DNA from: Hymenobacter siberiensis
GTDB taxonomy: Bacteria; Bacteroidota; Bacteroidia; Cytophagales; Hymenobacteraceae
Assembly (NCBI RefSeq): GCF_018967865.2
Contig: NZ_JAHLZY020000001.1
Span: forward strand, 3,658,001-3,722,000
Length of the DNA: 64,000 nt
Direction: 5' to 3'
This document shows, in pieces, positions 28,792 through 44,140 of the stretch. The position numbers were made by a program, and so were the translations under genes. A model generated the notes under the pieces. It was not told the DNA's origin, made no database searches, and worked only from the letters and a program-made list of their open reading frames with translations. The stretch's first letter is position 1; each line of letters begins with the position of its first letter.

Positions 28792-28806
28792 CCGGTTGAA
28801 CGTCCC

Positions 28807-29087: not shown

Positions 29088-30038
29088 ATGACTTACCGCC
29101 GCTGCGGCCGCAGTGGCCTGAAACTGCCGGCCCTCTCGCTGGGCCTGTGGCATAATTTCGGCGGGGTCGACACCTTCGAAAACGGACGCGCCATCCTGCA
29201 CCGCGCCTTCGACCGGGGCATTACGCACTTCGACATGGCCAACAACTACGGCCCGCCGCCCGGCTCGGCCGAGGAGAATTTTGGCCGCATCCTGCGCGAA
29301 GATTTCGCCGGCTACCGCAACGAGCTCATCATCTCGACCAAAGCCGGCTACCACATGTGGGAAGGCCCTTACGGCGATTAGGGCTCGAAGAAATATCTCG
29401 TTTCCAGCCTCGACCAGAGCCTCAAGCGCATGGGCCTGGAGTACGTCGACATCTTCTGCCACCACCGCCCCGACCCCGACACGCCCCTGACCGAAACCAT
29501 GGCCGCCCTCGACCTCATCGTGCGCCAGGGCAAGGCCTTGTACGTGGGCCTGAGCAACTACCTGCCCGCCGAGGCCGCCGAAGCTTTCGCCCTGCTGCGC
29601 GAGATGGGCACGCCCTGCCTCATCCACCAGCCCAAGTATTCCATGTTTGAGCGCTGGGTCGAAGACGGCCTGCTCGACCTACTGGGCGATGAGGGCGTGG
29701 GCTGCATCCCCTTCTCTCCCCTGGCCCAGGGCCTGCTCACCAACAAGTACCTGCACGGCATCCCCGACGATTCCCGCGTGGCCAAAGGCGTGGGTTTCCT
29801 CACCGAAAACAACCTCACACCCGAGCGCCTCGACCAGGTGCGCCGCCTCAACGACCTGGCAAAAACCCGCAACCAAAGCCTCGCCCAAATGGCCCTCTCC
29901 TGGCTGCTGAAGGACGAGCGGGTAACATCCGTCCTCATCGGTGCCAGCAAGCCGGAGCAGCTCGACGACTCGCTAAAGTGTCTGAAAAACCTAGCGTTCA
30001 GCGCGGAGGAGCTGGCGACGATTGAGGAGATTTTGTAG
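29088..30038 (+). pseudogene. Aldo/keto reductase (YghZ/GPR-like), interrupted by an in-frame amber codon
   Basis: Read through, this is a 316-residue aldo/keto reductase. The NADPH-enzyme motifs are there: ITHFDMANNYGPPPGSAEEN (Asp and Tyr of the tetrad), NELIISTKAGYHMWEGPYGD (Lys), DIFCHHRPDPDTPL (His), and PFSPLAQGLLTNKY. The TAG at codon 98 (29379-29381) falls in GPYGD*GSKKYLVSSLDQSL, where relatives carry Trp, so one TGG to TAG change suffices. The second part (from 29430) could start at an internal Met but would lack the barrel's first strands. Everything after the stop is conserved, so the mutation is recent or a sequence error. Confidence 0.82.
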
Positions 30039-30043
30039 GGTGC

Positions 30044-30126
30044 GGGGCTGGCCCCGCCCGCCGTTGAACAATTCATGCATCAACAGTACAACGGCAGCAG
30101 TTACCAGTGCCAACGGCGGGGCGGGT
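30044..30126. repeat. Short intergenic inverted repeat (GGGGCTGGCCCCGCCCGCCGTTG)
   Basis: GGCCCCGCCCGCCGTTGAAC at the left is mirrored by CAACGGCGGGGCGGG at the right (ending about 30126), enclosing about 45 bases. It lies between the reductase pseudogene and the next plus-strand gene. Confidence 0.6.
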
Positions 30127-30142
30127 GCGTATTTTTGTTGCG

Positions 30143-31399
30143 ATGATAAACCCTTCCGACAACACCGACGGCCCAACCGCCAATGCTGCCCCTACCGAAT
30201 TACAACAGCTAGAGGCCGCCTTGCAGTCCAAAGCCATTTCGCCGGCGCTTTTTGCTACCCTCGCAGCCCGATTGCACCTAGGCGACACGCCACCCGTCGT
30301 CGCCCCATCCATCAGTACCGGGCCGGAAAATACTGACCATACCGAGCTACCCTCGCTACTGTCACTTTTCGAGAGCCCGCCAGTGCCCCCGGTGCCGCCA
30401 CCCGCTCCGCTGCCTTTGCCGGCTCCGGTGGCAGCACCGCCCGATGCGGCGGCACCGCAGCCACAACCGCCGATAACCAGCCCATCACCACCAGCTTGGG
30501 TAGCGCCGCCGGTGGTAGCTCAACCAATTATCCGTCCGGTAGCACCACCGGTTGCGCCCCCACCGGTTTACGTTCCGACTTCGGAAGTGGAACCGGCCGC
30601 TCCACCCCGCCGCAATGCACTAACGACGCTGCTGGCCTCATTGGGCGGCGTGGGCCTGCTCGGGGTGGGCCTCTACTTGTATGTAGACCAGAACCACCCC
30701 GACAAAAACCTGACCGGCCCGCAGCCCGCGTCCACCGAAGAGGCGGCCCCGGCCCGCATCCCCGAGCCCGAAGCCGCCATAGTCGCGGCCCCGGAAACCG
30801 TGCGGGTAGCCGCGCCCACCGTTGCCACCACGGATTCCAGCGCCATAGCTGATGCACCCACCGAAACAGCCCCGGCAGAAGCCTCGGCTACGACCCCAGA
30901 TACGGAGGAAGCCACCGATGCGCCCGCCCCGGAGAGTAGCCCCGCTGCTGCCACCAATACTACCATACCCGCCCCCGTGCCCGCCGCGCCCGAGCCCGAT
31001 GACGACGATGCCACGCAAAAAATCCGCACGGTACTGGCCGGCTATTACGCCGACTTATTTGCCCCACCCCTGAACGCCGAAAACTACTTTGCCCCGCAGG
31101 TAGAACGCCTCTACATTCAGCAGCACCTCACGCCAGCCCAAATCAACGCCACCATTACCCAGACTTTTTTTCCGGATAACAAGAAGGCCGTTTACCAAGT
31201 GGAGCCCGGCACGCTGCGGGTGAGCGCGCCCGCGCAGGATGGCAGCCGTATGGCAACGTACAGTGAGGCATGCCGGCTGTTTCGGGTCTCGAAAGGTCGC
31301 TACCAGCGCCTGCGTACCCAAGTGCGGGTCAAATTCGACGCCGACTACCGCATTACGTTTCTACGACAGGAGAGAATGCTGGAGAATGTGTTTGAGTAG
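30143..31399 (+). CDS. Proline-rich bitopic membrane protein with a C-terminal NTF2-like domain
   Basis: A 418-residue protein with no signal peptide. Residues 15-48 are helical (ELQQLEAALQSKAISPALFA), 75-155 are proline-rich (PPVPPVPPPAPLPLPAPVAA), one membrane helix spans 161-181 (TTLLASLGGVGLLGVGLYLY), a Thr/Ala/Glu-rich linker follows, and the last 130 residues form a compact domain (IRTVLAGYYADLFAPPLNAE, AKQ..-free, TQTFFPDNKKAVYQVEPGTL, RQERMLENVFE) that looks NTF2-like. It is convergent with the MotA/MotB-Hsp70-tubulin operon (13 bp between stops), and by layout resembles the membrane protein at 33589, so it may be an accessory part. A start at 30143 avoids a long non-homologous N-terminus. 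Confidence 0.75.
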   Translation: MINPSDNTDGPTANAAPTELQQLEAALQSKAISPALFATLAARLHLGDTPPVVAPSISTGPENTDHTELPSLLSLFESPPVPPVPPPAPLPLPAPVAAPPDAAAPQPQPPITSPSPPAWVAPPVVAQPIIRPVAPPVAPPPVYVPTSEVEPAAPPRRNALTTLLASLGGVGLLGVGLYLYVDQNHPDKNLTGPQPASTEEAAPARIPEPEAAIVAAPETVRVAAPTVATTDSSAIADAPTETAPAEASATTPDTEEATDAPAPESSPAAATNTTIPAPVPAAPEPDDDDATQKIRTVLAGYYADLFAPPLNAENYFAPQVERLYIQQHLTPAQINATITQTFFPDNKKAVYQVEPGTLRVSAPAQDGSRMATYSEACRLFRVSKGRYQRLRTQVRVKFDADYRITFLRQERMLENVFE

Positions 31400-31412
31400 G
31401 GGCTCAACTGGA

Positions 31413-32144
31413 CTAATCAGCTGGCGGCGTGCTGGCTTGAGCGGCTGACATATCGGATGTCTGGCCCAAGGAACCGATTTTGGGCTGAATCTGAATGATG
31501 AAACGCCGGTTCAGGTCTTCCTCTTCGTTTTTATAACGGTTCACGCCGCCAAAACCACTACCAGCAGGCATTACTTCGTAGCGCGGAGCCGGAAATACAA
31601 TCCCGGCATCGCGCCACAGCTGATACACCGCCAGAGCCCGCAAATAGCTGATTTGACGGGTTATGGAGCCATCATAATTCTTTGGGGTATCGTAGGAATA
31701 GGAACCATCCGGCAGCCGCTGGTTGAACCGGGCAGTGCGGCCTTCAATCACCAACAGGTACTGAATACTATCCGGCGCATTCACCGTACTCAGCTGGCGT
31801 AGCAAGAAGCGTCCGGCATCAATCAAACGCGGCTTATCGGCTTCGGGGAGTTCCGAACTATTGGCCGCGAAAGCAATTTTGAAGCTTAACTCGTAGCGCT
31901 TGAATGCTTTGTTGTAGAAGAAATAGCGCGGGTCGTCCAGCCGCTTCAGGGCTTCTTTTATTTCATCAATTTTCTTCTTTTCCTTTAGCTGCACCTCCAG
32001 CTTCGCCTTGGCAGCTATCAGACTCGCTTCCTTGTCCTGAAACATCTTGTAGCTGAGCACAAACAGCACGAGCATGACCAGAAACAAGGCCGTCATCAGG
32101 TCCACGTAGCTGGGCCAGAAAAAATTGTTGCGGTCCTGGTTCAC
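31413..32144 (-). CDS. MotB/OmpA-like stator protein (ZorB-like)
   Basis: A 243-residue protein. One N-terminal membrane helix carries an aspartate (D15) at its start: FFWPSYVDLMTALFLVMLVL, closely matching the proton-carrying Asp of MotB. A coiled-coil linker (KAKLEVQLKEKKKIDEIKEA) follows, then an OmpA-like peptidoglycan-binding fold with AFAANSSELPEADKPRLIDA, QYLLVIEGRTARFNQR, ISYLRALAVYQLW and the end NRRFIIQIQPKIG. It should form a peptidoglycan-anchored proton-driven stator with the MotA-like protein encoded next to it (7 bases gap). It ends the seven-gene minus-strand operon. Confidence 0.85.
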   Translation of the reverse strand: MNQDRNNFFWPSYVDLMTALFLVMLVLFVLSYKMFQDKEASLIAAKAKLEVQLKEKKKIDEIKEALKRLDDPRYFFYNKAFKRYELSFKIAFAANSSELPEADKPRLIDAGRFLLRQLSTVNAPDSIQYLLVIEGRTARFNQRLPDGSYSYDTPKNYDGSITRQISYLRALAVYQLWRDAGIVFPAPRYEVMPAGSGFGGVNRYKNEEEDLNRRFIIQIQPKIGSLGQTSDMSAAQASTPPAD

Positions 32145-32151
32145 GGGCGGG

Positions 32152-33576
32152 CTATTTCTTCGGCGTGAGGCCGAGCATTTTTTGGAGCCAAGTGCGCTGG
32201 GTGAGCAGTTCGAGCACGGCGTTGGTACGCGTCACCTGCTGCACCAGGGCTTGCTGGAGGGCGGCATCGGCGGCAATCCGCAGTTCCAGCTGCTGCAGGG
32301 CGCGGGCGGTTTGGGTGGCCTGCTTTTCCTGCAATTGGTTGAGGGCGCGCTGCTGGGCCGGCATCTCGCTGAACGGACTCAGATACTGCACGATGCGCTC
32401 GTATACGTTGTCGTTATTCAGCTTACGAAAATGGTCTTCGAGTACGCCGGCAGCCTGGTCGGCTTCGGTGGTGAGCACGGCCATGCGCTGGCGCATCACC
32501 TGGGCCAGCTTGTGGTAGCTCTCGTCCATAAAGGCCTCGCCCTGCCGGGCCAGGCGGTCCATCTCGGCCTGGTTCTGGCTGAAGAATCGCAACTGCGACT
32601 CGACGGTGCCCGCGTGCTGCTGCACCAGGGCCGGCACTTGGTTCAGGCCTTCTTCGAGGCCTGTGAGGCGGCTCAGCAGGCTGGTGAGCGTGGTGGCCAC
32701 CTGCTGGCCGTTGCGCAGGGTCTGGTTCAGCTCCTGCTGGTAGGCCAGGAAATTTTCGAAGTGGTGGGCGCTTTCCGCCACCTTGTCGAACACCCGGATG
32801 CTGGCGTTAGCCATCTGGGTGTAGCCTACTTTTTGCAGCTCCGTCAGGAAATCTTTCTGTACGGTAATGTTCTCGTTCAGCGCCCCCACAATGGGGCCGA
32901 ACTCGTAAATCTTGCTCAGAAATTCCTGATTGAAGGAGTCCAGCACGGCCTTGAGCGTGCCAAGGCTGCCGGCCATGTCGGAGTGCAGAATGGGCAGCAG
33001 CTGCACTTGCAAAAACGTGTAGTAATCGTTGCGGCGCTGCTCGCTCTGCCGCCGAGCGGCTTTGTAGAGCGTGTTGCCCCACAGCGTGAGGCCCAGCCCA
33101 AACAGGCTGCCAATCATGGCCACCGTTACGCCCCGTAGGAACCCCTGAATCCCCACTTCATCGAACTTACCACTGCCCGCCAGCAAGCCGCCCAAGCCCA
33201 GGATAGCGCCCAGAAACGTGCCCATAAGCCCAATAAACAACGGGGCCGACGTGCCCGACTGCACCTCCGAATCGAGGGCCACGGCGCGGCGCTCGGCAAT
33301 GCTCTGCAGAATATCGAAATCGGCGGTGCCCTTATTTTTGAGCAGGTAGGCGTTGGTATCGCGCTCCACCAACTCAAAATCGGGCGTGGCCCCGGTCACC
33401 AGCAGCACGTCAACTAGTTGGCCGGTGGCTTCATCCTGGTGGCGCGTCAGGCGCAGGGCCATACTGGGCGGGAAAAGCGTGGCCAGTTGCGTGCTGGCCT
33501 GCTTTCCCTGCCAGAAAGCTCGTCCCTGAAAACCAATGATGATGACCAGCACCAACCACTCTAGAACCTCCATCAC
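32152..33576 (-). CDS. MotA/TolQ/ExbB-like proton-channel protein with long coiled-coil tail (ZorA-like)
   Basis: A 474-residue membrane protein with helices at about 4-16, 111-133 (APLFIGLMGTFLGAILGLGG) and 146-166 (FLRGVTVAMIGSLFGLGLTL). The two central helices have the MotA/TolQ pattern (P..GL.GT..G). The C-terminal 300 residues are almost all helical and Gln/Leu/Ala-rich, with long coiled coils (TLTSLLSRLTGLEEGLNQVP, ALQQLELRIAADAALQQALV). This long cytoplasmic tail is the feature of ZorA, compared with about 290 residues for flagellar MotA. It is adjacent to the MotB-like partner. Together they are expected to use the proton gradient to rotate or pull a partner. Confidence 0.87.
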   Translation of the reverse strand: MMEVLEWLVLVIIIGFQGRAFWQGKQASTQLATLFPPSMALRLTRHQDEATGQLVDVLLVTGATPDFELVERDTNAYLLKNKGTADFDILQSIAERRAVALDSEVQSGTSAPLFIGLMGTFLGAILGLGGLLAGSGKFDEVGIQGFLRGVTVAMIGSLFGLGLTLWGNTLYKAARRQSEQRRNDYYTFLQVQLLPILHSDMAGSLGTLKAVLDSFNQEFLSKIYEFGPIVGALNENITVQKDFLTELQKVGYTQMANASIRVFDKVAESAHHFENFLAYQQELNQTLRNGQQVATTLTSLLSRLTGLEEGLNQVPALVQQHAGTVESQLRFFSQNQAEMDRLARQGEAFMDESYHKLAQVMRQRMAVLTTEADQAAGVLEDHFRKLNNDNVYERIVQYLSPFSEMPAQQRALNQLQEKQATQTARALQQLELRIAADAALQQALVQQVTRTNAVLELLTQRTWLQKMLGLTPKK

Positions 33577-33588
33577 AATAAAAAACTG

Positions 33589-34851
33589 CTATTCAAACCG
33601 CACTTTGGCGCGTTGCACCACTTCCCAGTCGTCGCCCCGGCGGCGCACCATGCCGGGCTCCACGGTGATGACGCGGGCCTCGCTGCCCAGCGGGTAGCCA
33701 CTCACGTACTCGCACACGGGTTCGAGCACGCTGCGGTGGTCGCGCACGTGGCTGGCCAGGTTGCCCGTCACGGCAAACGTGCCTTGCTCGGGCTGCTGCT
33801 CACTGCTTTCGATAAGGAACATGCTGTACGTGCCCGGCTGGTCGCTCAGGGCTCGCGCCGGGAAAGAGTTGTTGAACGGCGCTTCGTTGGCGTATTGCGC
33901 GCGCAGGCAGGGAGTTGGAGCTGCCGGTGCCAATGCCGCTACCACGGGAGGTAACGGTAACGGCGCGACTGCTACTTTGGCTTGCTTCTCAGCCACGCGC
34001 TGTTCGATTTGCCGGGTAATTTCCTGTTTAATAGCAGCAGTCATACCCGCCGGTGAGGTGCCATTGCCGCCAGTAGCTTTAGGGCTGCTGACCTCCAACG
34101 TGCGCCGCAAGGTTGCGATTTCCTCCCTGGTATTACCCAGCTTATTCCACAGTAATGCGATACCCAGCAGGCCCAATCCTGCCAGGCCCAATGCCAGCCA
34201 CAGCAAGGAATTGGTTGGCGGGGCGGGCGCAGAAACCGGGGCAACTACTAGCGCAACTGACTCATTAGCAGCTGGAACATTCGAGCTGGCCGCCACTTGA
34301 TTCATGGGGTTATCAGCAGCCGGCTGCGACAGAGCAGCAGCGGCTGGAACCGTGGGCACGGCTCCGTTTGCCAGCTGATTGAGTCGTTGGGTAAGCAATT
34401 CAAGCTGCTGCGCCCGCGCCGGGTCGGCCATGCGTTCCTTATTGTCATCGAGCTTGCCCACAATAGCTTTGACCAGCACGGCCGGGTCGTTGGGGTCGAG
34501 TGGTTGTGCCTGAATCGTTTTGACCAGCTCCTGAAACTTCAGTAGACGCTTTTGCCCCGCCAGCTGCTTGTTTTCCAGCATCACGGCTTCGTCGATACTG
34601 TGGTTGAAAGCTACAACACTGCTGTTTTTAATGGTTTTTAGCAGGTCTGGCTGAATTTTATTAAGGTCACGGTCGTCCTTATAAACATATTCGGCCGTAG
34701 CGGCCCAGATGGCCGCCCGTGACGATGCGGTAACGGTGCTAGCGGCAGCCTTCGCTTCCGATGGTCTTCCTTGTCCTTGGGCGGCTCCTGTCCCAAAAGC
34801 AGCCACGATTACTGCCAACCAAATGACCCGCTTAAACTGTTTGCGCAGCAT
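33589..34851 (-). CDS. Membrane protein of the stator/Hsp70/tubulin operon
   Basis: A 420-residue protein with a cleavable-looking signal (MLRKQFKRVIWLAVIVAAFG), an exported helical segment (AVMLENKQLAGQKRLLKFQE, ARAQQLELLTQRLNQLANGA), a Pro/Ala-rich linker and a second membrane helix at 214-235 (NSLLWLALGLAGLGLLGIAL). A cytoplasmic coiled coil (NTREEIATLRRTLEV) and a C-terminal domain of about 110 residues follow (QYANEAPFNNSFPARALSDQ, GTYSMFLIESSEQQPEQGTF, EYVSGYPLGSEARVITVEPG). It overlaps the Hsp70-like gene by 20 bases and precedes the MotA-like gene by 12. It probably links the cytoplasmic ATPase to the envelope. I do not recognise the family. Confidence 0.75.
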   Translation of the reverse strand: MLRKQFKRVIWLAVIVAAFGTGAAQGQGRPSEAKAAASTVTASSRAAIWAATAEYVYKDDRDLNKIQPDLLKTIKNSSVVAFNHSIDEAVMLENKQLAGQKRLLKFQELVKTIQAQPLDPNDPAVLVKAIVGKLDDNKERMADPARAQQLELLTQRLNQLANGAVPTVPAAAALSQPAADNPMNQVAASSNVPAANESVALVVAPVSAPAPPTNSLLWLALGLAGLGLLGIALLWNKLGNTREEIATLRRTLEVSSPKATGGNGTSPAGMTAAIKQEITRQIEQRVAEKQAKVAVAPLPLPPVVAALAPAAPTPCLRAQYANEAPFNNSFPARALSDQPGTYSMFLIESSEQQPEQGTFAVTGNLASHVRDHRSVLEPVCEYVSGYPLGSEARVITVEPGMVRRRGDDWEVVQRAKVRFE

Positions 34852-37800
34852 AATATTTCCGGTAAAGCTCCTGCGACAGCTTGAACAGCGCGTCGCGGAA
34901 GGCGAAGAAGAATAAGGATTCGGGTAGTTTGTCGCCGGGCTTTTTGCTGGCGGCCACCAGGGCATTGTAGCCCGTGTTGAGGCTGTCTTTGAAGCGGCTG
35001 GTGAGGAAGTCGCGCACGAAATCAGCATCCAGCTCGATGTTGAGGCGGGCCAGCAGGTCCTGCACACCATCTTCGCGGTCTTGGGTAAGGAAGTCGAGCA
35101 GGTGGCGGGCATTGGCCAGCACGCCCTCGCGCAGGTCGCCGGCCTCGCTTAGCAGCGTGGGGCGGCGGATGAGGGCGACGGCATCGGGCGCGGGCGCGGC
35201 GGTTTCATCGGCCGGCGCGAACTGCTCGTTGCCAGGCAGCACGAACTGGAGCTTTTCGAGCATTTCACCCAGCTCGGCTCCGCTGTCGCGGCTGGCCTGG
35301 CGCATGGTGCGCTCCAACTCCTGACCGCCGCTTTCGTCCCAGCGCAAGGCGCTGCCGTTGGCGGTGGCCTCCTTGGCATTGTCTACCAGGGTCAGCGAAA
35401 AGTCGGCGGGCACTTGCAAGCCGCTGGCAAACTCCAGCACCCGCTGGGCCAGCCGCTTGATGGTGCTCAGGTTGGCGTTGAGGTCGAGCAGGCGCAAGTA
35501 TGTGCTCCCCTTGCCGCTGAACGTGACGTGGCGTGGCAGCTGTTTCAGCCCTTTGGCGCGACACACCTGCCCTACGTGGTAGAGAATGGCCGCGTAGTGC
35601 AGCAGCAGCAGCACACGCATTTGCTTGGCCTCGCGCACGTACTGGCTGAACTGAAGCTGCTCATCGAAGTTAAAAAGCAGGCTCACGAGGTCGGCCGAGC
35701 CTACGCTGTTGTTGCGGAGAGCCGCCAGAAAAACCTCATTGGCCTTCTTCGCCTCATCGCTGATAGAAGCGTTTTTGGTGCGCGACCGGTAGTCCAGCAG
35801 CAGGCCGTTATGCGCACGGTTGCCATCGGCGGCAGTTGTCCCCAAATCCCCCCACAGCACATCGCCGGCGAAACGGAACGAGAACGTAGCCGCGGGCTGC
35901 AAACCATCGAGCAGCAGCACGTCGGTGGTTCCGCCGCCGATGTCAATATTCACCACACTATCTTCCTGGGTGGGCACGATTTTACCGATTTTCCGCAGAT
36001 ACAGGTAGGGAGCCAACGACTCCGGGACTTTATCAAGCTGACTTTCATTGGGTATTCGGCCAAATGCCTTATTGTATTCATCACTCCATACCTCACTAAA
36101 AAAGTACTGGGTGGCGACATCCATGCTCAAGGGGTAGGACCACACCAGACGCACTTGGTTCAGGTCGCCGCCGTTGAGCGCGGCTTTGTGCTTGAGTAGT
36201 CGCAGCAGCTCGCGGAAATAGAGCCGCACGCGCTTCTTACCGGCATCCGCGTTGGGACCGCCGTCGGTGTTCCATTTCAGGTTCGTCTCGTAGCGTCCGT
36301 CCTCAGGCTGGCTATATAATTCGCTGTCGCGGCTTAGGAAAAACCCTACGTTAGCATCACCGAAAAGAAGGGGTTCGCCTTCGGCCGCGAAGCGGGGCGT
36401 TTCACAGGTCGCCGTGCGAATCGGAAAACTCGCTTCGGCCCCCCGGATGCCAACAAAAGATGGCACGAATTCGCGGTTCTGTAGCAGCGATGCCCGCGGA
36501 AAAGCCCGCACCTGGTAGCGAGATGGCAGGTCGTAGTCACCGGCTGCTTCGGGCTGGCTCAGCAGTACGGTTTGCAACTCGCGCTCGGCACCCATCGTGA
36601 ATGGTTCGGCTACGTTACCATTGGCGGCCACGGCTACGTGGGTATTGGTGGTGCCAAAATCCACGGCAAATGTGAACTTCGTGGTGCCGCCTACGTCGGT
36701 ACGCCAGTTTGGGGCGAGCAGCCCCGTGGCAGGCGGACTGCCGTATCCGCTGCCACCGGACACACTCACTTCCAGCAAGTCGAAATGCGTACCGCGCACT
36801 TCGTAATAAGTACTGGCCGGGCTCAGCGGCGAGCGCACCTGTCGGGTACGGGCCACCACTCCGCGTAGTGCGCCGCCCGCAGCCGCGCCCAACTCCTGCG
36901 GCCCGCCCGTGGCCGAGTACGTGAGAAATCGCAGCTGCGCGGGCGCGGCCGCCGTTTCGCCTTGCTCGGCCAACATCACCGAGTAGGCGTTGTTGTACCC
37001 TTGCATCGTGGGTTCAACGAACTTATAAAACGGAAACACCGCAATTTGCAGGCGGGCGGCTACGCGGCCGCCGCCGTAGGGCTTGTCGGCGCTTTGGCTG
37101 GGGGCCGATGGCACGGCCTGCTCGGCAGGCTGGCCGGGGCCGGGCAGGGCGTAGCGCCGCTCATACTCCACCGTGCGCCCGCCCGAAACCGGGATGGTAA
37201 GCCGGGCCTGCACATGGTTGGAGAACACCGTGAGGCGCAGCTGCCGGGCCAGGTCTTCGGGCTTAAAATAGTCGAAGTACGCCCTTTTCAGGGGCAGCAG
37301 GTAGCGAAACGGGCGCTGGTCCAGGGTCTGGCCGGGCTCGGCCTGCACTTCGCCGAAGTGGTATTTGTCGCGGTTCACGGCGAAGGGCACTTCCACCAGC
37401 ACGTCTTCCAGGAAGTCGTTCACTGTCAGGTACGGATAGAGCTCGCCCAGGCCGGGCAGCTCGCGGGTTTCCAGCTTTTCGTAGCCGGCGGGGGCGGCGT
37501 AGCCCACCACGGCGGTATCGTCGCCGGGGGTGCCGGCAAAGTAGTTGGTCCGGCGCAGGTCGAGGCCCGGCCGCAGCACCAGCGGCAGGCGCGGGTGCGC
37601 GGCAAGCAACGCCGGATTGGGCACGATAAACCAGTCGCTGCTCACCGCCTGCCGGGCCTGGCTGAGGCGGCGCAAGCCCACGCCGCGCACCTGCACCACG
37701 TTGCCATAATCATCGAGCCAGCTTTCGTAAGGCGCGGCGAAGGCTTCGGCCGTCAGGCCCTGGCCGTCCAGCTGGTTAACGCGGTTGGGGTTGAGGGCCT

Positions 37801-38491
37801 GCAAATAGCGGTATACGCCGTAGGCGAAAAACTTGTCGCGCAAGGCACGCTCCACGGTAAATAGCCCGTAGATGTAGGTTTGAAATGGCTCCGGGCGGGC
37901 ACTAAGCGGCACGGCCAGCTGATCGAAATACTGGCCCTGGCCGTTCTTGCGGGCCACGGGCAGCGGCTGCAACGCCGGATGCGCAAATACCAGCGTAAAT
38001 GGCGAAGTTCCGCCCAGCAGGCGGCGCTCCTGCCCCGACTTGTGCTCGGCGAAGATGAGGAACAGCGACTCCACACCTTCAAAATGGCGGTCGTTGGCCA
38101 GGTATAAATCAAGAGTGCGGCCCAGCAGCGCCGTGCGCGGGTTGGCCTGGAGCTGCTGAAGCTGCTCGGCCCGCTTCCAGGGCACGAAGCGCAACCGGTA
38201 GGCATCGGTGTCTTTGGCGTAGAATAAGAATTCGAGCAGGTCCCAGCACTGGCTCACCAGCCGGTGGTACATGCTTTGACCCAGCGGATTATCGGCCGCG
38301 AACTTAAAAGCCGTTTCCAGCAGATGCAGCTGGCCAAACGGCGTGGGAATGGCCGTGGCCGTGCGCCGGGCGTTGCCGCCGGCCGGGTCCACAATATTCT
38401 GGTCGATAACGGTTTCGGTCAGTTGAATCGACTCCTGCCAACCGCGGTATTGTTCGTTGCCCCCGCTGTGGAGGCGTAATATCTTGCTCAC
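34832..38491 (-). CDS. Giant Hsp70/actin-fold ATPase with a large N-terminal domain
   Basis: A 1219-residue protein. The C-terminal half is an Hsp70/actin-like ATPase: phosphate-1 motif FAVDFGTTNTHVAV at about residues 610-623, phosphate-2 motif NIDIGGGTTDVLLL near 849, and adenosine motif TFSGKGSTYLRLL near 990. Its N-terminal 600 residues contain no recognised domain, only mixed alpha/beta sequence (FGQLHLLETAFKFAADNPLG, QSMYHRLVSQCWDLLEFLFY). Hsp70 proper is about 640 residues, so this is a much larger relative, with size and order recalling SrfB-type proteins. The gene follows the tubulin-like gene by 51 bases. It is expected to bind and hydrolyse ATP and change shape, perhaps to act on the stator complex. 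Confidence 0.83.
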   Translation of the reverse strand: MSKILRLHSGGNEQYRGWQESIQLTETVIDQNIVDPAGGNARRTATAIPTPFGQLHLLETAFKFAADNPLGQSMYHRLVSQCWDLLEFLFYAKDTDAYRLRFVPWKRAEQLQQLQANPRTALLGRTLDLYLANDRHFEGVESLFLIFAEHKSGQERRLLGGTSPFTLVFAHPALQPLPVARKNGQGQYFDQLAVPLSARPEPFQTYIYGLFTVERALRDKFFAYGVYRYLQALNPNRVNQLDGQGLTAEAFAAPYESWLDDYGNVVQVRGVGLRRLSQARQAVSSDWFIVPNPALLAAHPRLPLVLRPGLDLRRTNYFAGTPGDDTAVVGYAAPAGYEKLETRELPGLGELYPYLTVNDFLEDVLVEVPFAVNRDKYHFGEVQAEPGQTLDQRPFRYLLPLKRAYFDYFKPEDLARQLRLTVFSNHVQARLTIPVSGGRTVEYERRYALPGPGQPAEQAVPSAPSQSADKPYGGGRVAARLQIAVFPFYKFVEPTMQGYNNAYSVMLAEQGETAAAPAQLRFLTYSATGGPQELGAAAGGALRGVVARTRQVRSPLSPASTYYEVRGTHFDLLEVSVSGGSGYGSPPATGLLAPNWRTDVGGTTKFTFAVDFGTTNTHVAVAANGNVAEPFTMGAERELQTVLLSQPEAAGDYDLPSRYQVRAFPRASLLQNREFVPSFVGIRGAEASFPIRTATCETPRFAAEGEPLLFGDANVGFFLSRDSELYSQPEDGRYETNLKWNTDGGPNADAGKKRVRLYFRELLRLLKHKAALNGGDLNQVRLVWSYPLSMDVATQYFFSEVWSDEYNKAFGRIPNESQLDKVPESLAPYLYLRKIGKIVPTQEDSVVNIDIGGGTTDVLLLDGLQPAATFSFRFAGDVLWGDLGTTAADGNRAHNGLLLDYRSRTKNASISDEAKKANEVFLAALRNNSVGSADLVSLLFNFDEQLQFSQYVREAKQMRVLLLLHYAAILYHVGQVCRAKGLKQLPRHVTFSGKGSTYLRLLDLNANLSTIKRLAQRVLEFASGLQVPADFSLTLVDNAKEATANGSALRWDESGGQELERTMRQASRDSGAELGEMLEKLQFVLPGNEQFAPADETAAPAPDAVALIRRPTLLSEAGDLREGVLANARHLLDFLTQDREDGVQDLLARLNIELDADFVRDFLTSRFKDSLNTGYNALVAASKKPGDKLPESLFFFAFRDALFKLSQELYRKYYAAQTV

Positions 38492-38542
38492 GGGATGATG
38501 CCTTTAGAAAATGAGGGAGGGGAGAATGGCGTTGTGGCCCGC

Positions 38543-40018
38543 TTAAAATCCGGGGACTTTCTCCACCACGGCTTTACTCAATACTTCGCTGAACGCCCGT
38601 ACGAAGGCCGCTGGCCCATCGGCCGTTGCCACGGGCTTGGGTATGGCCTTGTTCAATTCACCAAACAAATAGCTGCGGGTGAGCCCCTTGTTGAATAAGC
38701 CGGTAGCCGTGGACTGGCCCGCCACTACGCGGTTGAAGTTTTCCGTGGCCATGGCCGGGTCTTCGAAGGGCAGGAACGCCCGCTCATTGGCACCTAACTC
38801 ACGCAGCCATGCCTCGAAGCCGAAGTTATTGTCCTGCAAAAACCGTTGGAGCTGCTGGTAAAACTCTTCGTCGCGCCAGGCGCGGGGCAGTTGCAGGTGG
38901 TTGGCGTAGGGCGCTTCCTGGGTGTGCGGCAGGTGGTAGCGGCACCACAGCGCCAGCATCTGGAGCTGGGTCAGGGGCTGGGCAATTTGCCGGAATGACT
39001 GGCCGGGGTCCAACGCCTTGAACGTGACCTGGCGGACGTCTTCCTCCAAGCCGTACTCGTAGTGCAGCGGCTGGTTGTGCTGGAGGTAGTCGGCGGGCTG
39101 GCGCATGAAGTCCAGCACGGCCAGGGCCCCCACCATTTCAATGAAATGGGCATTGTTTTGCTGCTGGCTGCCGCCTTCGTGGTTGGCCAGCTGGCCGGTG
39201 CTCTGGTCGCCGAGGTAGTAGAGAGCATTCAGCTGCTGGATGTTCTTCTGATAGTAGGCCAGGGCCGCTTTAGTCTTTGTAATGAAGCCGTTGGAGTCGA
39301 TGGCGCTGCCATCGTCGGCCAGCAGGTTGAAATAGGGCAGCACGGTGAGGGCACCCATCGGAGCCTGGTTCAGCAGTTCGGCGCGGGGCAGAGTGGTGCG
39401 GGGGTTGCGCAGATTTTTGAGCAGCAGCGGAAAGCCCGCCGCTCCCGTGCCGCCAAAGATGGACGAGATGAAGAACACCCGGTCGCCCTCGGCAAACGAG
39501 TTGGCGAAAAACTCCAGCTCCGGCGAGCTCATCAGCTGGTTCAGTACTACGCTGCCCACGTTGGGGCTACCCTTGAAGCCCACGGTGAGCTTGCTGGCCA
39601 GGTTGGCGGGCGTGAAGAGCAGGTCCACGAGGTGGCGGCTTTCCACGGGCATGTCGTCGTAGTGCAGGAAGTCGCGGTAGCTTTCGTCCATGCCCCCGAA
39701 ATTGTAGGCGAAGGTTTCCTTCACGCGGGCATCGCGTGGCTGGTTTTCGCTGGCCGCCATACCGGCCAGGGTCTGGATTTCGGTGGCAAAGAACTCGCCC
39801 GGCGCGGGGGCTGGTTTCAGCTGCCGGCGCAGGCGCTCGTAGGTTTTGAGCAGCTCCACGGTGCGGGTCATGTCGCCGTTCTGCGCGTCCGGGTCGATGA
39901 TAATAGGTACCACCTTATCACAGTTTTCGACGGTGGCTCCGGCGGCCAATAGCATGGTCAGCGAGCGAATAACGCGCGAGCCGGTGCCGCCAATACCGAA
40001 TATATATAGCTTGGGCAT
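38543..40018 (-). CDS. Tubulin/FtsZ-like GTPase-fold protein
   Basis: A 491-residue protein with the FtsZ/tubulin signs: a first glycine-rich loop FGIGGTGSRVIRSL (residues 8-15), IIIDPDAQNGDM as the T2-like region, and the tubulin signature in modified form FFISSIFGGTGAAGFP (188-195; canonical GGGTGSG). A long C-terminal helical part follows (WRDEEFYQQLQRFLQDNNFG). It is not FtsZ: the GGTGAA variant and the length differ, and it resembles 'tubulin-like' proteins found beside Hsp70-like proteins. It is encoded in the same operon as an actin-fold ATPase and a stator pair. Whether it polymerises is unknown. Confidence 0.8.
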   Translation of the reverse strand: MPKLYIFGIGGTGSRVIRSLTMLLAAGATVENCDKVVPIIIDPDAQNGDMTRTVELLKTYERLRRQLKPAPAPGEFFATEIQTLAGMAASENQPRDARVKETFAYNFGGMDESYRDFLHYDDMPVESRHLVDLLFTPANLASKLTVGFKGSPNVGSVVLNQLMSSPELEFFANSFAEGDRVFFISSIFGGTGAAGFPLLLKNLRNPRTTLPRAELLNQAPMGALTVLPYFNLLADDGSAIDSNGFITKTKAALAYYQKNIQQLNALYYLGDQSTGQLANHEGGSQQQNNAHFIEMVGALAVLDFMRQPADYLQHNQPLHYEYGLEEDVRQVTFKALDPGQSFRQIAQPLTQLQMLALWCRYHLPHTQEAPYANHLQLPRAWRDEEFYQQLQRFLQDNNFGFEAWLRELGANERAFLPFEDPAMATENFNRVVAGQSTATGLFNKGLTRSYLFGELNKAIPKPVATADGPAAFVRAFSEVLSKAVVEKVPGF

Positions 40019-40100
40019 TTTTGATAAGCTGTTAGCTGACAGCGGTTAGCTGCTGGCTTTTCCTGAAAAATAAAAAATCGTGGCCATCTGGCCGGGCGGC

Positions 40101-40562
40101 CTAGCGGCTGGGCCAGCGCACCGGCGTCACCTTCGCATTCGGCGACAACCCCTTGATGATGAACGACCACAGCACGAAAAACAACGCCCCAAATAGCACA
40201 TTCACAAAGGCAAAGCCCAATACGTAGCGCGAGTACGCCGACTCGCTGCCCGGCGGAATCACCACGCCCTTGGTGGCCAGCACCTCATACACCACCGACC
40301 GCGCCTGAAACCAAGCCAGCAGCCCGGAGCAAGCGGCAAACAACAGCAGAAACAAGAACCAGTGCTTGGTTTGGTAAAGCGCCGTGGTCAGCAGCCGGTT
40401 CAGCACTAGGTAGAAAAATAGTGTTCCCAACAGGCCAATGCCAAACAAGGTGGCCAAGCCTACGCCGGGAAAAATGCTGTTTTCGAAGGCGGCCGTGAGC
40501 ATGGCAGGTTCGGGCAGGCCCAGCAAGGCTTCGTAGAGGGAAGTAAAAAGCTTTTGGAACAT
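40101..40562 (-). CDS. Small membrane protein of the stator/Hsp70/tubulin operon
   Basis: A 153-residue protein with three membrane helices, at about 35-57 (GLATLFGIGLLGTLFFYLVL), 68-85 (FLFLLLFAACSGLLAWF) and 112-135 (VLGFAFVNVLFGALFFVLWS), and a basic C-terminus. No conserved catalytic residue is visible. It lies 75 bases after the VWA-like lipoprotein gene and 82 bases before the tubulin-like gene. It may anchor the cytoplasmic filament proteins to the inner membrane. Confidence 0.75.
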   Translation of the reverse strand: MFQKLFTSLYEALLGLPEPAMLTAAFENSIFPGVGLATLFGIGLLGTLFFYLVLNRLLTTALYQTKHWFLFLLLFAACSGLLAWFQARSVVYEVLATKGVVIPPGSESAYSRYVLGFAFVNVLFGALFFVLWSFIIKGLSPNAKVTPVRWPSR

Positions 40563-40637
40563 ACAGGGAAAGGAAATAAGCCACCCGAAGGCGAAACGAG
40601 AAAAACAATGGATAGCCGCCAGCAGCAGCGGCGCGGG

Positions 40638-41963
40638 TTAGTCGCGGGTTTCCACCTGCACCGGCAGGCTGAATACGCGCTGGGCACCGGGCTCACCGGC
40701 AAAATACTCCTCCACGCCCATCATCACCTCTTTGAAAAAGAATGTTTTAGCCCCGGTTTTTTTGATGTTGCTGTCGTCGGCCACGGAATAGGCGGCAATC
40801 CAGGCGGGTTGCGGGCGGGCCAGCTCCAACGCCAGCGTGGTCCGGGGCGGGGCCTGCGTGAAGCGGAGCTGCACGAAATGCGTGTACTTGGCGAACGCGG
40901 GCTGCGACTTCGCGGCGGGCTCCTGGGCCAGCGGCCACGCCCGCACCAAGGTGGCCGGCCCGGCACCGTCGGCTAGGCGTAGCGTTTTCAGGCTCAGCTC
41001 ATTGGTTTGGCTGGGGGGCAGCTTGCTCAGGTTGAGGCCCAGCACCAATTCGGCCGGCTCCCGGAAGTTGGGCTTTTCTCGAAACGTTACCGCCGGCGTA
41101 GTGCCGGGTGCGCCATTTTCCGCCGTCCATTTCCCCACCATCGGCTCATAAAAATCGAGCACTGCGTAAGCGGGCTGGAAGCGCACGTTATAGTGCGCCT
41201 GGGGCTGGGCGGCCAGCTTGCCCAGCAGGCCGGCATCAACTTGCGCCACCAGCGCGGGGTCGCCAAGGACCCAGATGTAGTACGGAATTTTCTCGCCGTT
41301 CAGCGCCTGCTTTCCGCTGCGGTTGCCGGGGTAGAAATTACCTCGATACTCGGAGGTATTGGCAAATACTGAAATAGCCAGCTTACTGGCATCCACCTCA
41401 CTCAGCGCATCCTTGATGAAGGTTTTGATTTTCCAGGTTTGTCCTTTCTCTTTTGGGGCGAAGATAAAGTCCGAGATGAGCAGACTCACAGTGCCGGGCT
41501 TCTGGGCCTGTAGTTTGAGGGCCTCACGCAGCATCTGGGGAAGTTCTGAGCCCCGGGCGGCGTTTTTGAGCCCTCCGCTCACGGTACTGGTCATCTCATC
41601 GTAGCTGCTCGGCACCAGCAGGCGGGCATCGGCGGGCGTGCTCTCTTTGAAGAAGTAGTAGCCTGTCGGCATGTGCTGCCTGGTTTTTTGTGCATTTACT
41701 TCGGAGAGCAAGTCGGTCACGGTGTTTTGAAAGCCGCTGCCCGAAGCGCCGGGCGCTACCGGATGCACGAAGCCCTGCATCCCACCTGACATATCAACGA
41801 ACACATTGATTTGGCCAAGCTTTGCCACGGTCTCCGAAGCTATTTCAGTGGGCTGGCCACCAGTGCTTTTCTCCTGCGGAGAGGCCCCTCCGCAAGCACT
41901 CAGCAGGAGCAGGCCTGTCGATGCGAAACTAACTTGAAAGGTAGCTCTTGATAAAAATGACAT
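40638..41963 (-). CDS. Lipoprotein with VWA-like motif, first gene of the operon
   Basis: A 441-residue lipoprotein (lipobox LSAC, Cys24). After a short linker the fold begins QINVFVDMSGGMQGFVHPV: the 'DMSGG' resembles a degenerate VWA metal-ion site (DxSxS). KPGTVSLLISDFIFAPKEKG fits the second metal-site strand. The rest is beta-rich, with LVLGLNLSKLPPSQTNELSL near the middle. It would sit at the outer or inner membrane facing the periplasm and may bind a partner or cell-wall ligand. It is the promoter-proximal gene of the seven-gene minus-strand operon. Confidence 0.75.
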   Translation of the reverse strand: MSFLSRATFQVSFASTGLLLLSACGGASPQEKSTGGQPTEIASETVAKLGQINVFVDMSGGMQGFVHPVAPGASGSGFQNTVTDLLSEVNAQKTRQHMPTGYYFFKESTPADARLLVPSSYDEMTSTVSGGLKNAARGSELPQMLREALKLQAQKPGTVSLLISDFIFAPKEKGQTWKIKTFIKDALSEVDASKLAISVFANTSEYRGNFYPGNRSGKQALNGEKIPYYIWVLGDPALVAQVDAGLLGKLAAQPQAHYNVRFQPAYAVLDFYEPMVGKWTAENGAPGTTPAVTFREKPNFREPAELVLGLNLSKLPPSQTNELSLKTLRLADGAGPATLVRAWPLAQEPAAKSQPAFAKYTHFVQLRFTQAPPRTTLALELARPQPAWIAAYSVADDSNIKKTGAKTFFFKEVMMGVEEYFAGEPGAQRVFSLPVQVETRD

Positions 41964-42352
41964 CGAATCAGGATAGATTATAAAATGGGAAAGAGGGGCA
42001 ATACTACTGCTTTTCGGATAAAGACCATCACCTTATTATTGCCAACCAGAGAAAAAACCGGCGCAGACCGTTAGACAAGATAGCCACTCCAACGCGCTCC
42101 ACGCCCGGCTATTACGCGCCCTCCGGCCAATGACCAAATTTTCTGGCCTTATCCAACGTGGGGATGGAGTCGTACTTCGTTCAGCTCCCCTGCGCCACCT
42201 GCCTTTCGGCCCAACGTTTTTACCGGCCGCGCTGTTATAAAGCAGAAGGCAAATTGGGCCACCCCAACCCCGCCCCGTACCTTTGCGCCAGCGGCCTCCT
42301 ACGTTGTGGCCGCCTCAAACCCGACGCCCGGTTAAAGGCACTTATTGCTCTT
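41964..42352. other. Intergenic region between divergent transcription units
   Basis: About 390 bp between the stator operon (minus) and the reductase gene (plus). It carries the plus-strand promoter 42256-42287. No clear TAnnTTTG box is visible for the minus-strand operon. No reading frame with coding character is supported. Confidence 0.5.
42256..42287 (+). promoter_or_regulatory. Bacteroidota-type promoter of the ferredoxin reductase gene
   Basis: TTG at 42256-42258, a 21-base spacer and TACCTTTG at 42280-42287 match the Bacteroidota consensus; the coding start is 66 bases downstream. Confidence 0.7.
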
Positions 42353-43369
42353 ATGCCCAACACGATTTCAACCGATATCTGCATCATCGGGGCCGGCCCG
42401 GTCGGCCTGTTCGCCGTTTTCGAAGCCGGTTTGCTCAAGCTCCGCTGCCATGTGGTTGATGCGCTGCCCCAGCCCGGTGGCCAGCTCTCCGAAATTTATC
42501 CCAAGAAGCCGATTTACGACATCCCGGGTTTTCCCGAGATTCTGGCCGGCGACCTCGTCGATAATCTGATGAAGCAGATTAAGCCCTTCCACCCCACCTT
42601 CACGCTGGGCGAGCGGGTGGAGCGGTTTGCCAAGCTCGACGATGGCTCGTTCCAGCTGTTCACCACCGATGGCACCGAGATTCACTGCAAGGCCGTAGCC
42701 ATTGCCGGCGGCCTGGGCTCGTTCGAGCCCCGCAAGCCAGCCGTCGAAAACCTGGAAAACTTCGAGGGTGGCAAAGGCGTGCACTACATGGTGCGCGACC
42801 CCGAGAGCTTCCGCGACAAGAAAATCGTGATTGCCGGCGGCGGCGACTCGGCCCTCGACTGGACCAACTTCCTGGCCAATGTGGCTTCCGACGTCACGCT
42901 CGTGCACCGGGGCACCACCTTCCGGGGCGCGGCCGACTCGGCCGAGAAAGTGCAGAAGCTGCACGAATCCGGCAAAATCAGGCTCGTGCTCAGCTCCAAC
43001 GTTACGCACCTGCACGGCAACGGCACGCTGAAGGAAGTGACCATCACCGGCAACGATGGCAAGGCCGAAACCGTGCCGCTCGACTGCTTCATTCCCCTCT
43101 TCGGCCTCACGCCCAAGCTCGGCCCCATCGGCGAGTGGGGCCTCGAAATCGAGAACGACGCGGTGAAAGTGAACACGCTCGACTACAGCACCTCGCTGCC
43201 CGGCGTATTCGCCATCGGCGACATCAACACTTACCCCGGCAAGCTAAAGCTCATCCTCTGCGGCTTCCACGAAGCCGCCCTGATGTGCCAGGGCGCGTTC
43301 AAATACATTTTCCCCGACAAGAAGTACACCCTCAAGTACACGACCGTGAACGGGGCACCCTCTATGTGA
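42353..43369 (+). CDS. Ferredoxin-NADP reductase / thioredoxin-reductase-like flavoprotein
   Basis: A 338-residue two-dinucleotide-binding flavoprotein: FAD motif DICIIGAGPVGLFAVFEAGL, second Rossmann motif KKIVIAGGGDSALDWTNFLA, and FAD tail SLPGVFAIGDINTYPGKLKL. The redox-active CxxC of real thioredoxin reductases is absent, so this is the TrxR-like ferredoxin(flavodoxin)-NADP+ reductase type. The next gene encodes a 2Fe-2S ferredoxin, the expected electron partner. The start at 42353 (MPNTISTDIC) is chosen over 42158, which gives an N-terminus without homology. Confidence 0.92.
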   Translation: MPNTISTDICIIGAGPVGLFAVFEAGLLKLRCHVVDALPQPGGQLSEIYPKKPIYDIPGFPEILAGDLVDNLMKQIKPFHPTFTLGERVERFAKLDDGSFQLFTTDGTEIHCKAVAIAGGLGSFEPRKPAVENLENFEGGKGVHYMVRDPESFRDKKIVIAGGGDSALDWTNFLANVASDVTLVHRGTTFRGAADSAEKVQKLHESGKIRLVLSSNVTHLHGNGTLKEVTITGNDGKAETVPLDCFIPLFGLTPKLGPIGEWGLEIENDAVKVNTLDYSTSLPGVFAIGDINTYPGKLKLILCGFHEAALMCQGAFKYIFPDKKYTLKYTTVNGAPSM

Positions 43370-43473
43370 GATGGTGAGTGGTGAGAGGGCGAGTTTGATG
43401 TTCGGTTTGCGCAGGTAGCGCGGCTGGAACGTCAAGCTCGCCCTCTCACCACTCACTATTTCACCATCTCACT
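43367..43473. repeat. Inverted repeat between reductase and ferredoxin genes
   Basis: GTGAGATGGTGAGTGGTGAG at the left and CTCACCACTCACTATTTCAC at the right form the arms; inner arms GAGGGCGAGTTTGA / TCAAGCTCGCCCTC also pair. The left arm overlaps the reductase stop. This GTGGTGAG family also appears as a half-copy at 47383-47402. Confidence 0.75.
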
Positions 43474-43475
43474 AT

Positions 43476-43802
43476 ATGGAAGAAGACATCCGCATCTACG
43501 TCGAGGAAGCGCCCGGCCAGCGCCGCGAAATAATTGCTCCCACCGACATGGGCCTGAGCCTGATGGAAGTGCTCAAAGCTGATGGCTACGACATTCAGGC
43601 GACTTGTGGCGGCATGGCCCTGTGCGCCACCTGCCACGTGGAGGTGCTGGCCGGCCCCGCCCTGCCCGAGCCCCAGGATGCCGAGCTCGACATGCTCGAA
43701 ACCCTGCCCGTGGTGCACGAAGGCTCGCGCCTGAGCTGCCAGATTCGCCTCACGCCCTGCGTGGATGGGCTGGTGGTGCGCCTGGCCCCCACGGGCGCTT
43801 AG
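43476..43802 (+). CDS. Adrenodoxin-type 2Fe-2S ferredoxin
   Basis: A 108-residue ferredoxin. The four cluster cysteines are in ATCGGMALCATCHVEVL (three) and GSRLSCQIRLTP (fourth), the CX5CX2C...C pattern of vertebrate/putidaredoxin-type ferredoxins; Glu and Asp residues at the typical reductase-docking surface (DAELDMLETLPVV) are present. It is separated from the reductase gene by a palindromic repeat of about 105 bases and may be co-transcribed. The electron acceptor is unknown. Confidence 0.93.
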   Translation: MEEDIRIYVEEAPGQRREIIAPTDMGLSLMEVLKADGYDIQATCGGMALCATCHVEVLAGPALPEPQDAELDMLETLPVVHEGSRLSCQIRLTPCVDGLVVRLAPTGA

Positions 43803-43822
43803 CAAAGCCTTTAATTACCAAC

Positions 43823-43858
43823 AAAAAAGACCGTCAGCTCAGCATGACGGTCTTTTTT
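43823..43858. terminator. Bidirectional rho-independent terminator
   Basis: AAAAAAGACCGTCA and TGACGGTCTTTTTT pair around GCTCAGCA, with A- and T-runs on both sides. It sits between the convergent ferredoxin gene and the zinc-finger anti-sigma gene. Confidence 0.92.
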
Positions 43859-43876
43859 ATGTATTCAGATGACACC

Positions 43877-44131: not shown

Positions 44132-44140
44132 AGCGAATAG

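What the first reader, a model, noticed from the sequence alone, without database searches (positions are those of the whole stretch)
31413..41963. Operon joining a proton stator, an Hsp70/actin-fold ATPase and a tubulin-fold GTPase
Seven minus-strand genes with small gaps or overlaps encode a VWA-like lipoprotein, a three-helix membrane protein, a tubulin/FtsZ-like protein (GIGGTGSR, FGGTGAAG), a 1219-residue Hsp70-like ATPase (DFGTTN, DIGGGTTD, SGKGS), a bitopic membrane protein, and a MotA-like/MotB-like pair. A stator that spans the envelope, a wall anchor, and two cytoskeletal nucleotide-binding folds in a single operon are not part of any system I know. Plausible roles are an envelope machine for defence, cell-wall damage sensing, or contact-dependent export. 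The stator pair recalls Zorya, but ZorC, ZorD, ZorE and other known effectors are absent.
Basis: partly seen in the sequence, partly recalled or inferred. Interest (0 to 1): 0.95.

Follow-up and report, generated by a model that had tools for sequence, protein, structure and literature searches.

The report
Swappable proton-motor and cytoskeleton operon
Most sequenced members of one bacterial family carry a set of seven genes that joins a probable proton-driven membrane motor to two cytoskeleton-type proteins, and two strains of one species carry very different versions of the whole set at the same chromosomal place, which hints at a role in conflicts with phages or rivals.

Summary
Window 31413-41963 (minus strand) is a seven-gene operon in a Hymenobacter genome: VWA lipoprotein, 3-TM protein, tubulin/FtsZ-like GTPase, 1219-aa actin-fold (MreB/Hsp70-like) ATPase, bitopic protein, MotA/ZorA-like and MotB/ZorB-like stator subunits. 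All seven recur in the same order in 70 of 80 related loci; the same order holds in 7 of 7 compact loci from other families of the order, with all seven recognised in 4. The stator belongs to it: 10 of 10 tested family genomes with the tubulin gene have MotA, 0 of 20 without it; one genome with the set in three places keeps all seven. The core also occurs without a recognised stator, including on a cyanobacterial plasmid, so this extends the FtsZl1/vWA operons of Makarova and Koonin (2010). New here: a conspecific strain has 98-99% identical flanks but a complete operon whose proteins are 24-68% identical. Best reading: one proton-powered envelope machine diversified by phages or competitors. 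It is not classical Zorya: no ZorC/D/E was recognised. Function is inferred; nothing was tested at the bench.

The parts
40638..41963 (-). VWA-fold lipoprotein (441 aa): signal peptide with invariant Cys24, MIDAS-like D57-M-S-G-G-M (D or E at the first position in relatives), then a beta-rich part
40101..40562 (-). small membrane protein, three hydrophobic segments (36-54, 69-87, 118-136)
38543..40018 (-). tubulin/FtsZ-like GTPase (491 aa), Tubulin_2/FtsZl1-type, motifs GIGGTGSR and FGGTGAAG
34832..38491 (-). 1219-aa actin-fold (MreB/Hsp70-like) ATPase: about 600 residues of unidentified N-terminal region, then DFGTTN, a conserved Lys (NLKW), Glu (ES.APY), DIGGGTTD and SGKGS
33589..34851 (-). 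bitopic protein (420 aa): signal-peptide-like start, strong TM segment at 216-234 (a weaker hydrophobic stretch at 293-311), conserved C-terminal domain
32152..33576 (-). MotA/ZorA-like stator subunit (474 aa): TM at 1-19, 114-132, 147-165 and about 300 residues after the last TM
31413..32144 (-). MotB/ZorB-like stator subunit (243 aa): TM 14-32 with invariant Asp15 (WPSYVDLMT), OmpA-like periplasmic region with invariant Arg169
30107..31399 (+). convergent 430-aa Pro/Ala-rich gene inside the exchanged segment; homologues (63-64% over about 125 C-terminal residues) found only at the same place in two other loci of the same allele type (L033, also fetched as L025, and L037); none found in the conspecific G508 stretch
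30052..42200 (.). exchanged segment: flanks outside it are 98-99% identical to conspecific G508, inside it only scattered 64-76% matches

Best explanation
The seven proteins form one envelope-spanning machine. The MotA/ZorA-like and MotB/ZorB-like pair is a proton stator held at the wall by MotB; proton flow moves the MotA-like ring and its long cytoplasmic segment, which acts on the cytosolic pair, the tubulin-like GTPase and the actin-fold ATPase, to drive their assembly or disassembly at the membrane. The VWA lipoprotein, the 3-TM protein and the bitopic protein carry a signal or load between the outer envelope and the cytoplasm. The machine deals with phages or competing bacteria, so its alleles are under diversifying selection and the whole operon is exchanged as a cassette between strains. 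Shown by computation: gene set, order, two folds, co-loss, allele exchange. Inferred: complex formation, proton flux, direction of coupling, polymerisation, selection and conflict role. My estimates: one functional unit 0.9; working stator 0.8; role in an antagonistic interaction 0.5; anti-phage in particular 0.3.
For: Unit: 70 of 80 loci (the best 80 of 531) with all seven genes in order; same order of the recognised genes in 7 of 7 compact loci of other Cytophagales families, all seven recognised in 4. Co-loss: MotA in 0 of 20 family genomes without the tubulin gene and 10 of 10 with it (20 of the 28 misses and 10 of the 176 hits were tested). All 9 sampled outside-family genomes with a near-full-length MotB match have the tubulin gene and the ATPase; the 7 with only an OmpA-part match have no tubulin gene. 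In G040 the set lies in three places of one 9-Mb contig, all seven parts kept, while its congener G640 has it intact. Stator: Asp15 and Trp10 invariant in 16 rows, ZorB1 PADLOC E 9e-7, MotB-type structures, ZorA PADLOC best 4.5e-6 in relatives. Conflict: conspecific G508 has 98.97% (4.3 kb) and 98.11% (4.6 kb) identical flanks, yet the proteins between are VWA 33, TM3 36, tubulin-like 45, ATPase 41, bitopic 24, MotA 46, MotB 68% identical; G508's tubulin-like protein is about 69% identical to four alleles of other species, 45% to the window's. GyrB and RpoB both recover the groups {G000,G019,G022} and {G014,G020,G032}, which the operon tree cuts across.
Against: The tubulin gene is near-core (37 of 37 genus genomes), almost always single-copy, and beside metabolic and regulatory genes, unlike most defence systems, which are patchy (recalled). 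No nuclease or other toxic effector was recognised. The MotA assignment of the window protein itself is weak (0.096), and the window MotB has no OmpA match of its own. MotB lacks the usual OmpA aspartate (GHTD motif, recalled), so wall binding is uncertain. Related cores lack a recognised stator, so the stator is not essential to the core. MotB, an envelope protein, is the most conserved of the set. Cassette exchange can also arise from surface-antigen variation or from frequent recombination without an enemy; no test of selection was run.
Confidence: 0.5

Rival explanations
1. Housekeeping envelope machine: a proton-powered device for outer-membrane or wall upkeep, cell shape or surface movement, used by most Hymenobacteraceae; allele exchange only reflects easy homologous recombination between conserved flanks.
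For: Near-core: 37 of 37 genus genomes, 176 of 204 family genomes; fixed order; metabolic and regulatory neighbours; related motors serve flagella, gliding, type 9 secretion and Ton (abstract of PMC11890865, seen).
Against: 28 of 204 family genomes have no tubulin-gene match. Operon proteins average 0.41-0.59 pairwise identity where GyrB averages 0.83 over 13 genomes, with weak correlation (r 0.14-0.29). A housekeeping role does not by itself explain such deep alleles within one species.
Confidence: 0.28
2. Self/non-self or surface-identity locus: the VWA lipoprotein and the bitopic protein are exposed or exchanged parts of a contact-dependent system (kin recognition, export or adhesion), and allele mismatch decides the outcome between strains.
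For: VWA and 3-TM proteins diverge most among the six compared (mean identity 0.41 and 0.45, against tubulin-like 0.58), and the bitopic protein is the most divergent between the two conspecific strains (24%); whole-cassette exchange within one species; more than one deep allele type at the same slots.
Against: MotB, also an envelope protein, is the most conserved (0.59). No toxin/immunity pair, secretion gene or adhesin was recognised among the seven. Cytosolic parts are exchanged too.
Confidence: 0.17
3. A true Zorya system with unusual effectors.
For: ZorB1 match E 9e-7; ZorA matches in relatives, best 4.5e-6; long segment after the last MotA TM.
Against: No ZorC, ZorD or ZorE match among the seven proteins; NCBIfam ZorB1 score 20 against a cut-off of 400, ZorA 0.57.
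Confidence: 0.03

Closest known systems
FtsZl1 (Tubulin_2, PF13809) / vWA / OmpA predicted membrane-remodelling operons, Makarova and Koonin 2010, PMC2875224
   Same: FtsZ-like GTPase with a vWA protein, OmpA-family and membrane proteins in one operon; the core here matches a tubulin-like gene cluster on a cyanobacterial plasmid.
   Different: The text read (parts 1-3 of 5) names a vWA protein, a P-loop GTPase, kinases and OmpA proteins; MotA, ExbB, TolQ and Hsp70 have 0 occurrences in the main text. Here there is a stator pair and an actin-fold ATPase, no P-loop motif in the seven proteins, and the GTPase is much shorter (491 against 1051 aa). Supplements were not readable, so its unnamed families A1-A2 and B1-B9 could include some of these genes.
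DO-GTPase/GAP1 conflict systems, Kaur et al. 2020, PMC7159879
   Same: Predicted conflict systems; one passage describes a class that combines TRAFAC GTPases with tubulin homologues and an HSP70 protein, others add vWA proteins (passages read).
   Different: No DO-GTPase or GAP1 match in the seven proteins. In the GAP1-N2 passage tubulin and HSP70 are separate themes, in Firmicutes and Actinobacteria. MotA has 0 occurrences in the main text.
Zorya (ZorAB motor with ZorCD or ZorE), PMC11890865
   Same: Wall-binding motor with a long cytoplasmic ZorA tail; ZorAB recruits the cytosolic nickase ZorE to the membrane during infection (abstract and passages read). ZorA/ZorB-type sequence matches here.
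   Different: Partners here are a tubulin-like GTPase and an actin-fold ATPase plus a VWA lipoprotein; no nuclease or helicase recognised; near-core in its family.
SrfB (PF07520)
   Same: Large protein with an actin-fold ATPase domain (recalled).
   Different: Only 2 of 9 members match, best E 0.041; not the window protein.

Membership tests
FtsZl1/vWA operons | Tubulin_2/FtsZ-like GTPase domain | tested here: met
   PF13809 in 12 of 12 members at E up to 1, best 1.6e-6; the window protein alone is below the cut-off (15 against 27 bits). Met through relatives: a Rufibacter protein 46% identical over 99% carries PF13809, and a plasmid protein annotated 'tubulin-like' matches at E 3e-27
FtsZl1/vWA operons | vWA-domain protein in the operon | tested here: met
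   fold model and structure matches; no sequence-profile match
FtsZl1/vWA operons | long coiled coil and alpha-helical C-terminal domain in the FtsZ-like protein | not tested
   491 aa here, 1051 aa in Huta_2051; no coiled-coil or structure prediction was run on it
FtsZl1/vWA operons | P-loop GTPase or protein kinase partner (frequent, not universal) | tested here: not met
   no GxxxxGK[ST] in the seven proteins; no kinase match
Zorya | ZorA and ZorB motor subunits | tested here: inconclusive
   ZorB1 E 9e-7; ZorA in PADLOC only in relatives, NCBIfam ZorA 0.57 in the window
Zorya | ZorC+ZorD or ZorE effector | tested here: not met
   no PADLOC match at E up to 1 for the other five proteins
MotAB/ExbBD/ZorAB proton stators | protonatable Asp in the single TM of the B subunit | tested here: met
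   Asp15 invariant in 16 of 16 rows, aligned with Asp of 8qyd_F and 8vvn_B (8qyd recalled as ZorB)
MotAB/ExbBD/ZorAB proton stators | A subunit with the MotA/TolQ/ExbB domain | tested here: inconclusive
   PF01618 in 9 of 19 members, best 7.8e-5, window 0.096
MotAB/ExbBD/ZorAB proton stators | 5:2 assembly and proton flux | not testable with these tools
   needs cryo-EM and flux assays
Actin/Hsp70/MreB (ASKHA) ATPases | phosphate-1, phosphate-2 and adenosine motifs with catalytic residues, and the fold | tested here: met
   D589, K715, E798, D824 (numbering of L035) invariant in 34 rows (roles recalled); fold of L035 matches MreB E 1e-9 and Hsp70-type proteins E 1.5e-8 and 1.3e-7
DO-GTPase/GAP1 systems | DO-GTPase and GAP1 proteins | tested here: not met
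   no such Pfam match at E up to 1; no P-loop motif

The most novel reading that the evidence does not exclude
A proton-powered, cytoskeletal immune or antagonism machine: stator torque, instead of bringing in a nuclease as in Zorya, remodels a tubulin-like and an actin-fold polymer at the membrane, and the whole seven-gene machine exists as deep alleles kept for long times and swapped in place between strains, as in an immune or self-recognition locus.
Probability: 0.33. Interest if true: 0.92.

Novelty: new variant of a known kind. Interest (0 to 1): 0.78.

Why it matters
It would link three parts not put together in the literature that I could search: a ZorAB-type motor, a tubulin-fold GTPase and an actin-fold ATPase. 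It gives the FtsZl1/vWA prediction of 2010 a possible power source and a near-core host family with named isolates, and the natural allele swap between two strains of one species gives a ready genetic test of what the machine does.
Full report
OBSERVATION. Seven ORFs lie head to tail on the minus strand at 31413-41963, in transcription order VWA lipoprotein, 3-TM protein, tubulin-like GTPase, 1219-aa ATPase, bitopic protein, MotA-like, MotB-like. Gaps are 75, 82, 51, -20, 12 and 7 bases; the bitopic start is taken as ATG 34851. The window is G000:C1:3658001-3722000 of a 4.83-Mb genome. It belongs to Hymenobacter: the best relatives in the named collection are mostly Hymenobacter. The genome marked 'same species', G508, has a contig of 4,709,305 bases, the length also given for a contig holding a protein named for Hymenobacter siberiensis, so that is the likely species (inference).

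WHAT THE PARTS ARE. No protein of the window reaches a curated cut-off in Pfam or NCBIfam, so relatives were used. Tubulin-like: PF13809 in 12 of 12 and PF00091 in 11 of 12 aligned members at E up to 1, best 1.6e-6 and 8.1e-6. ATPase: FtsA, EutA and MreB matches in 6, 5 and 5 of 9 members, SrfB in 2 of 9; a model of the 1189-aa relative L035 (pLDDT 82.2) matches MreB (E 1e-9) and Hsp70-type proteins (1.5e-8, 1.3e-7); the Asp, Lys, Glu and Asp positions expected of Hsp70/actin ATPases (recalled) are invariant in 34 rows. The first 600 residues or so remain unidentified; they were not searched on their own. VWA: the model (pLDDT 88.2) matches Rpn10, Ku80, TFIIH, integrin and VWF A domains, with D/E-x-S-G-x-M and an invariant lipobox Cys. 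MotB: matches 8vvn_B at 4e-13 and 8qyd_F at 9e-9 (8qyd recalled as ZorB), Asp15 invariant; PF00691 OmpA in 14 of 16 members, not in the window protein. MotA: PF01618 in 9 of 19 members, ZorA models in at most 5 of 19 with best E 4.5e-6, three TM segments and about 300 further residues.

IS IT ONE SYSTEM? The named scan confirmed 531 stretches and kept the best 80; 70 of these 80 have all seven families in order on one strand. The ten others: L036, L062, L092 and L109 are cut by contig ends (part of MotA is seen in L036); L034 has no MotA in the 1.7 kb left on its contig; L097 has MotA and only a weak MotB match (E 2e-4); in L104, L105, L108 and L111 no bitopic gene was recognised in place although a gap of more than 1.3 kb is there. 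Prevalence of the tubulin gene: 37 of 37 genus genomes and 3 of 22 other order-level genomes; 176 of 204 family genomes (20 of the 28 misses are listed, none of those in the genus); 13 of 395 phylum genomes, four of them in the genus. MotA was sought in 20 of the 28 family genomes without the tubulin gene (0 of 20) and in 10 of the 176 with it (10 of 10). Five of the 20 were also searched for the ATPase; none has a full-length match, four have only weak matches (E above 3e-4) in ORFs of 434-450 aa. In a sample of 291 order genomes 60 had a MotB match at E 1e-20. Of the 16 of these outside the family, the nine near-full-length ones have tubulin gene and ATPase, and the seven OmpA-part ones have no tubulin gene. 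Seven of the nine carry a compact set in the same order: all seven families are recognised in L238, L240, L241 and L243; in L239 and L244 one gene in place (3-TM, bitopic) is not recognised; in L242 the 3-TM gene is not recognised and extra ORFs intervene. G631 has the three sought parts on three contigs. G040 has VWA-TM3-tubulin (L013), ATPase-bitopic-MotA (L236) and MotB (L237) at three places of one contig.

WHERE NO STATOR WAS FOUND. The core without an adjacent stator occurs in G056, G305, G427 and G074, and the MotA profile found nothing elsewhere in these genomes. G340 and G241 have tubulin and ATPase genes with other neighbours (TerD 4e-51 and OmpA 3e-19 in L134, the G241 locus). G365, the most distant, has a MotB and a MotA-like protein (PF01618 1.1e-4) flanking the core, but the whole-genome MotA profile missed it, so absences in distant genomes are not firm. 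G445 has a broken set, the G148 stretch ends at a contig end, and G037 has only the tubulin gene nearby. A Gloeothece plasmid has VWA (1.9e-18), a small 4-TM protein, tubulin-like (2.4e-56) and ATPase (1.7e-20) genes in a row, the VWA gene on the other strand; no MotB match at E up to 1 and no MotA match under 0.01 was found on the whole plasmid. A Prevotella record also has the core without a recognised MotB or convincing MotA. The stator is therefore best seen as a module joined to an older core.

ALLELE EXCHANGE. G508 matches the window at 98.97% over 25707-30051 and 98.11% over 42201-46771, and between these points has a complete seven-gene operon in the same order whose proteins are 24-68% identical. 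Hymenobacter artigasi (L093) likewise has flanks of 92-97% and scattered operon pieces of 65-73%. In Hymenobacter at least three chromosomal slots are used; slot B holds two deep allele types, slot C (recognised for L034 and L035 by the upstream side only) holds two, and slot A holds a second type in inverted orientation. The type of the window, L033 and L034 also carries a convergent 430-aa gene in the window, L033 and L037, not found in L035; L034 and L036 do not reach far enough. Over 13 genomes GyrB averages 0.826 pairwise identity while six operon proteins average 0.405-0.589, and correlations with GyrB are 0.14-0.29. Groups found with both GyrB and RpoB, {G000,G019,G022} (support 99 and 76) and {G014,G020,G032} (100 and 100), each contain two operon types.

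MECHANISM. From the anatomy: a wall-side MotB, a MotA with a long cytoplasmic segment, two cytosolic nucleotide-dependent proteins of polymer-forming superfamilies, and three envelope proteins. Zorya gives the nearest worked model: ZorAB is a motor with a long cytoplasmic tail, and it recruits the nickase ZorE to the membrane during infection (PMC11890865, abstract and passages). I propose the same logic with cytoskeletal instead of nuclease partners. The exchange of whole alleles at fixed places is the pattern of loci shaped by enemies or rivals (recalled, not tested here), which tips me towards a conflict role; near-core presence is the main counter-evidence.

COMPARISON AND NOVELTY. Makarova and Koonin (PMC2875224, parts 1-3 of 5 read) predicted FtsZl1/vWA/OmpA systems for membrane remodelling; Kaur et al. 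(PMC7159879, passages) placed tubulin, vWA and HSP70 proteins in predicted conflict systems. Neither main text mentions MotA. Nine searches of open-licence papers listed none that I recognised as joining a stator with a tubulin-like gene; most papers in those listings, among them two on stator evolution, were not opened. I therefore call it a new variant of a known kind, with cassette exchange as the most surprising part.

Noticed in passing
window 29379-29381: The aldo/keto reductase next to the operon has an in-frame TAG at codon 98, while relatives match over its full length.
   Followed up: partly
window about 28800-29040 and 43366-43465: Interspersed repeats of about 70-100 bases with many copies across the G508 genome, about 1 kb outside both ends of the exchanged segment.
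   Followed up: no
window 30035-30070: A GC-rich hairpin of about 35 bases lies at the left breakpoint; short 92%-identical pieces sit at several contig ends of G019.
   Followed up: partly
L134:487-5128 and L133:7016-8455: In two distant Bacteroidota the tubulin/ATPase pair is followed by other small proteins instead of a stator: in L134 TerD-domain and OmpA proteins; the one L133 protein tested had no Pfam match.
   Followed up: partly
L245 and L247 (NC_014503.1, Gloeothece plasmid): The core module sits on a plasmid typed as mobilizable in Cyanobacteria; across the record start follow a second protein with an ATPase-profile match (E 7e-13), and farther on two TIR-domain genes.
   Followed up: partly
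L016:9481-9640 and L017:9641-9800: The tubulin-like gene is split by a frame change near residue 300 in two assemblies, without an obvious long homopolymer run at the break.
   Followed up: partly
L127:16605-18020, L130:16551-17852, L131:15210-16514: Stator-less cores are followed by a 430-470-aa single-TM protein, with a WG repeat in L127 and L130 and an SH3-like stretch below cut-off in L131.
   Followed up: no
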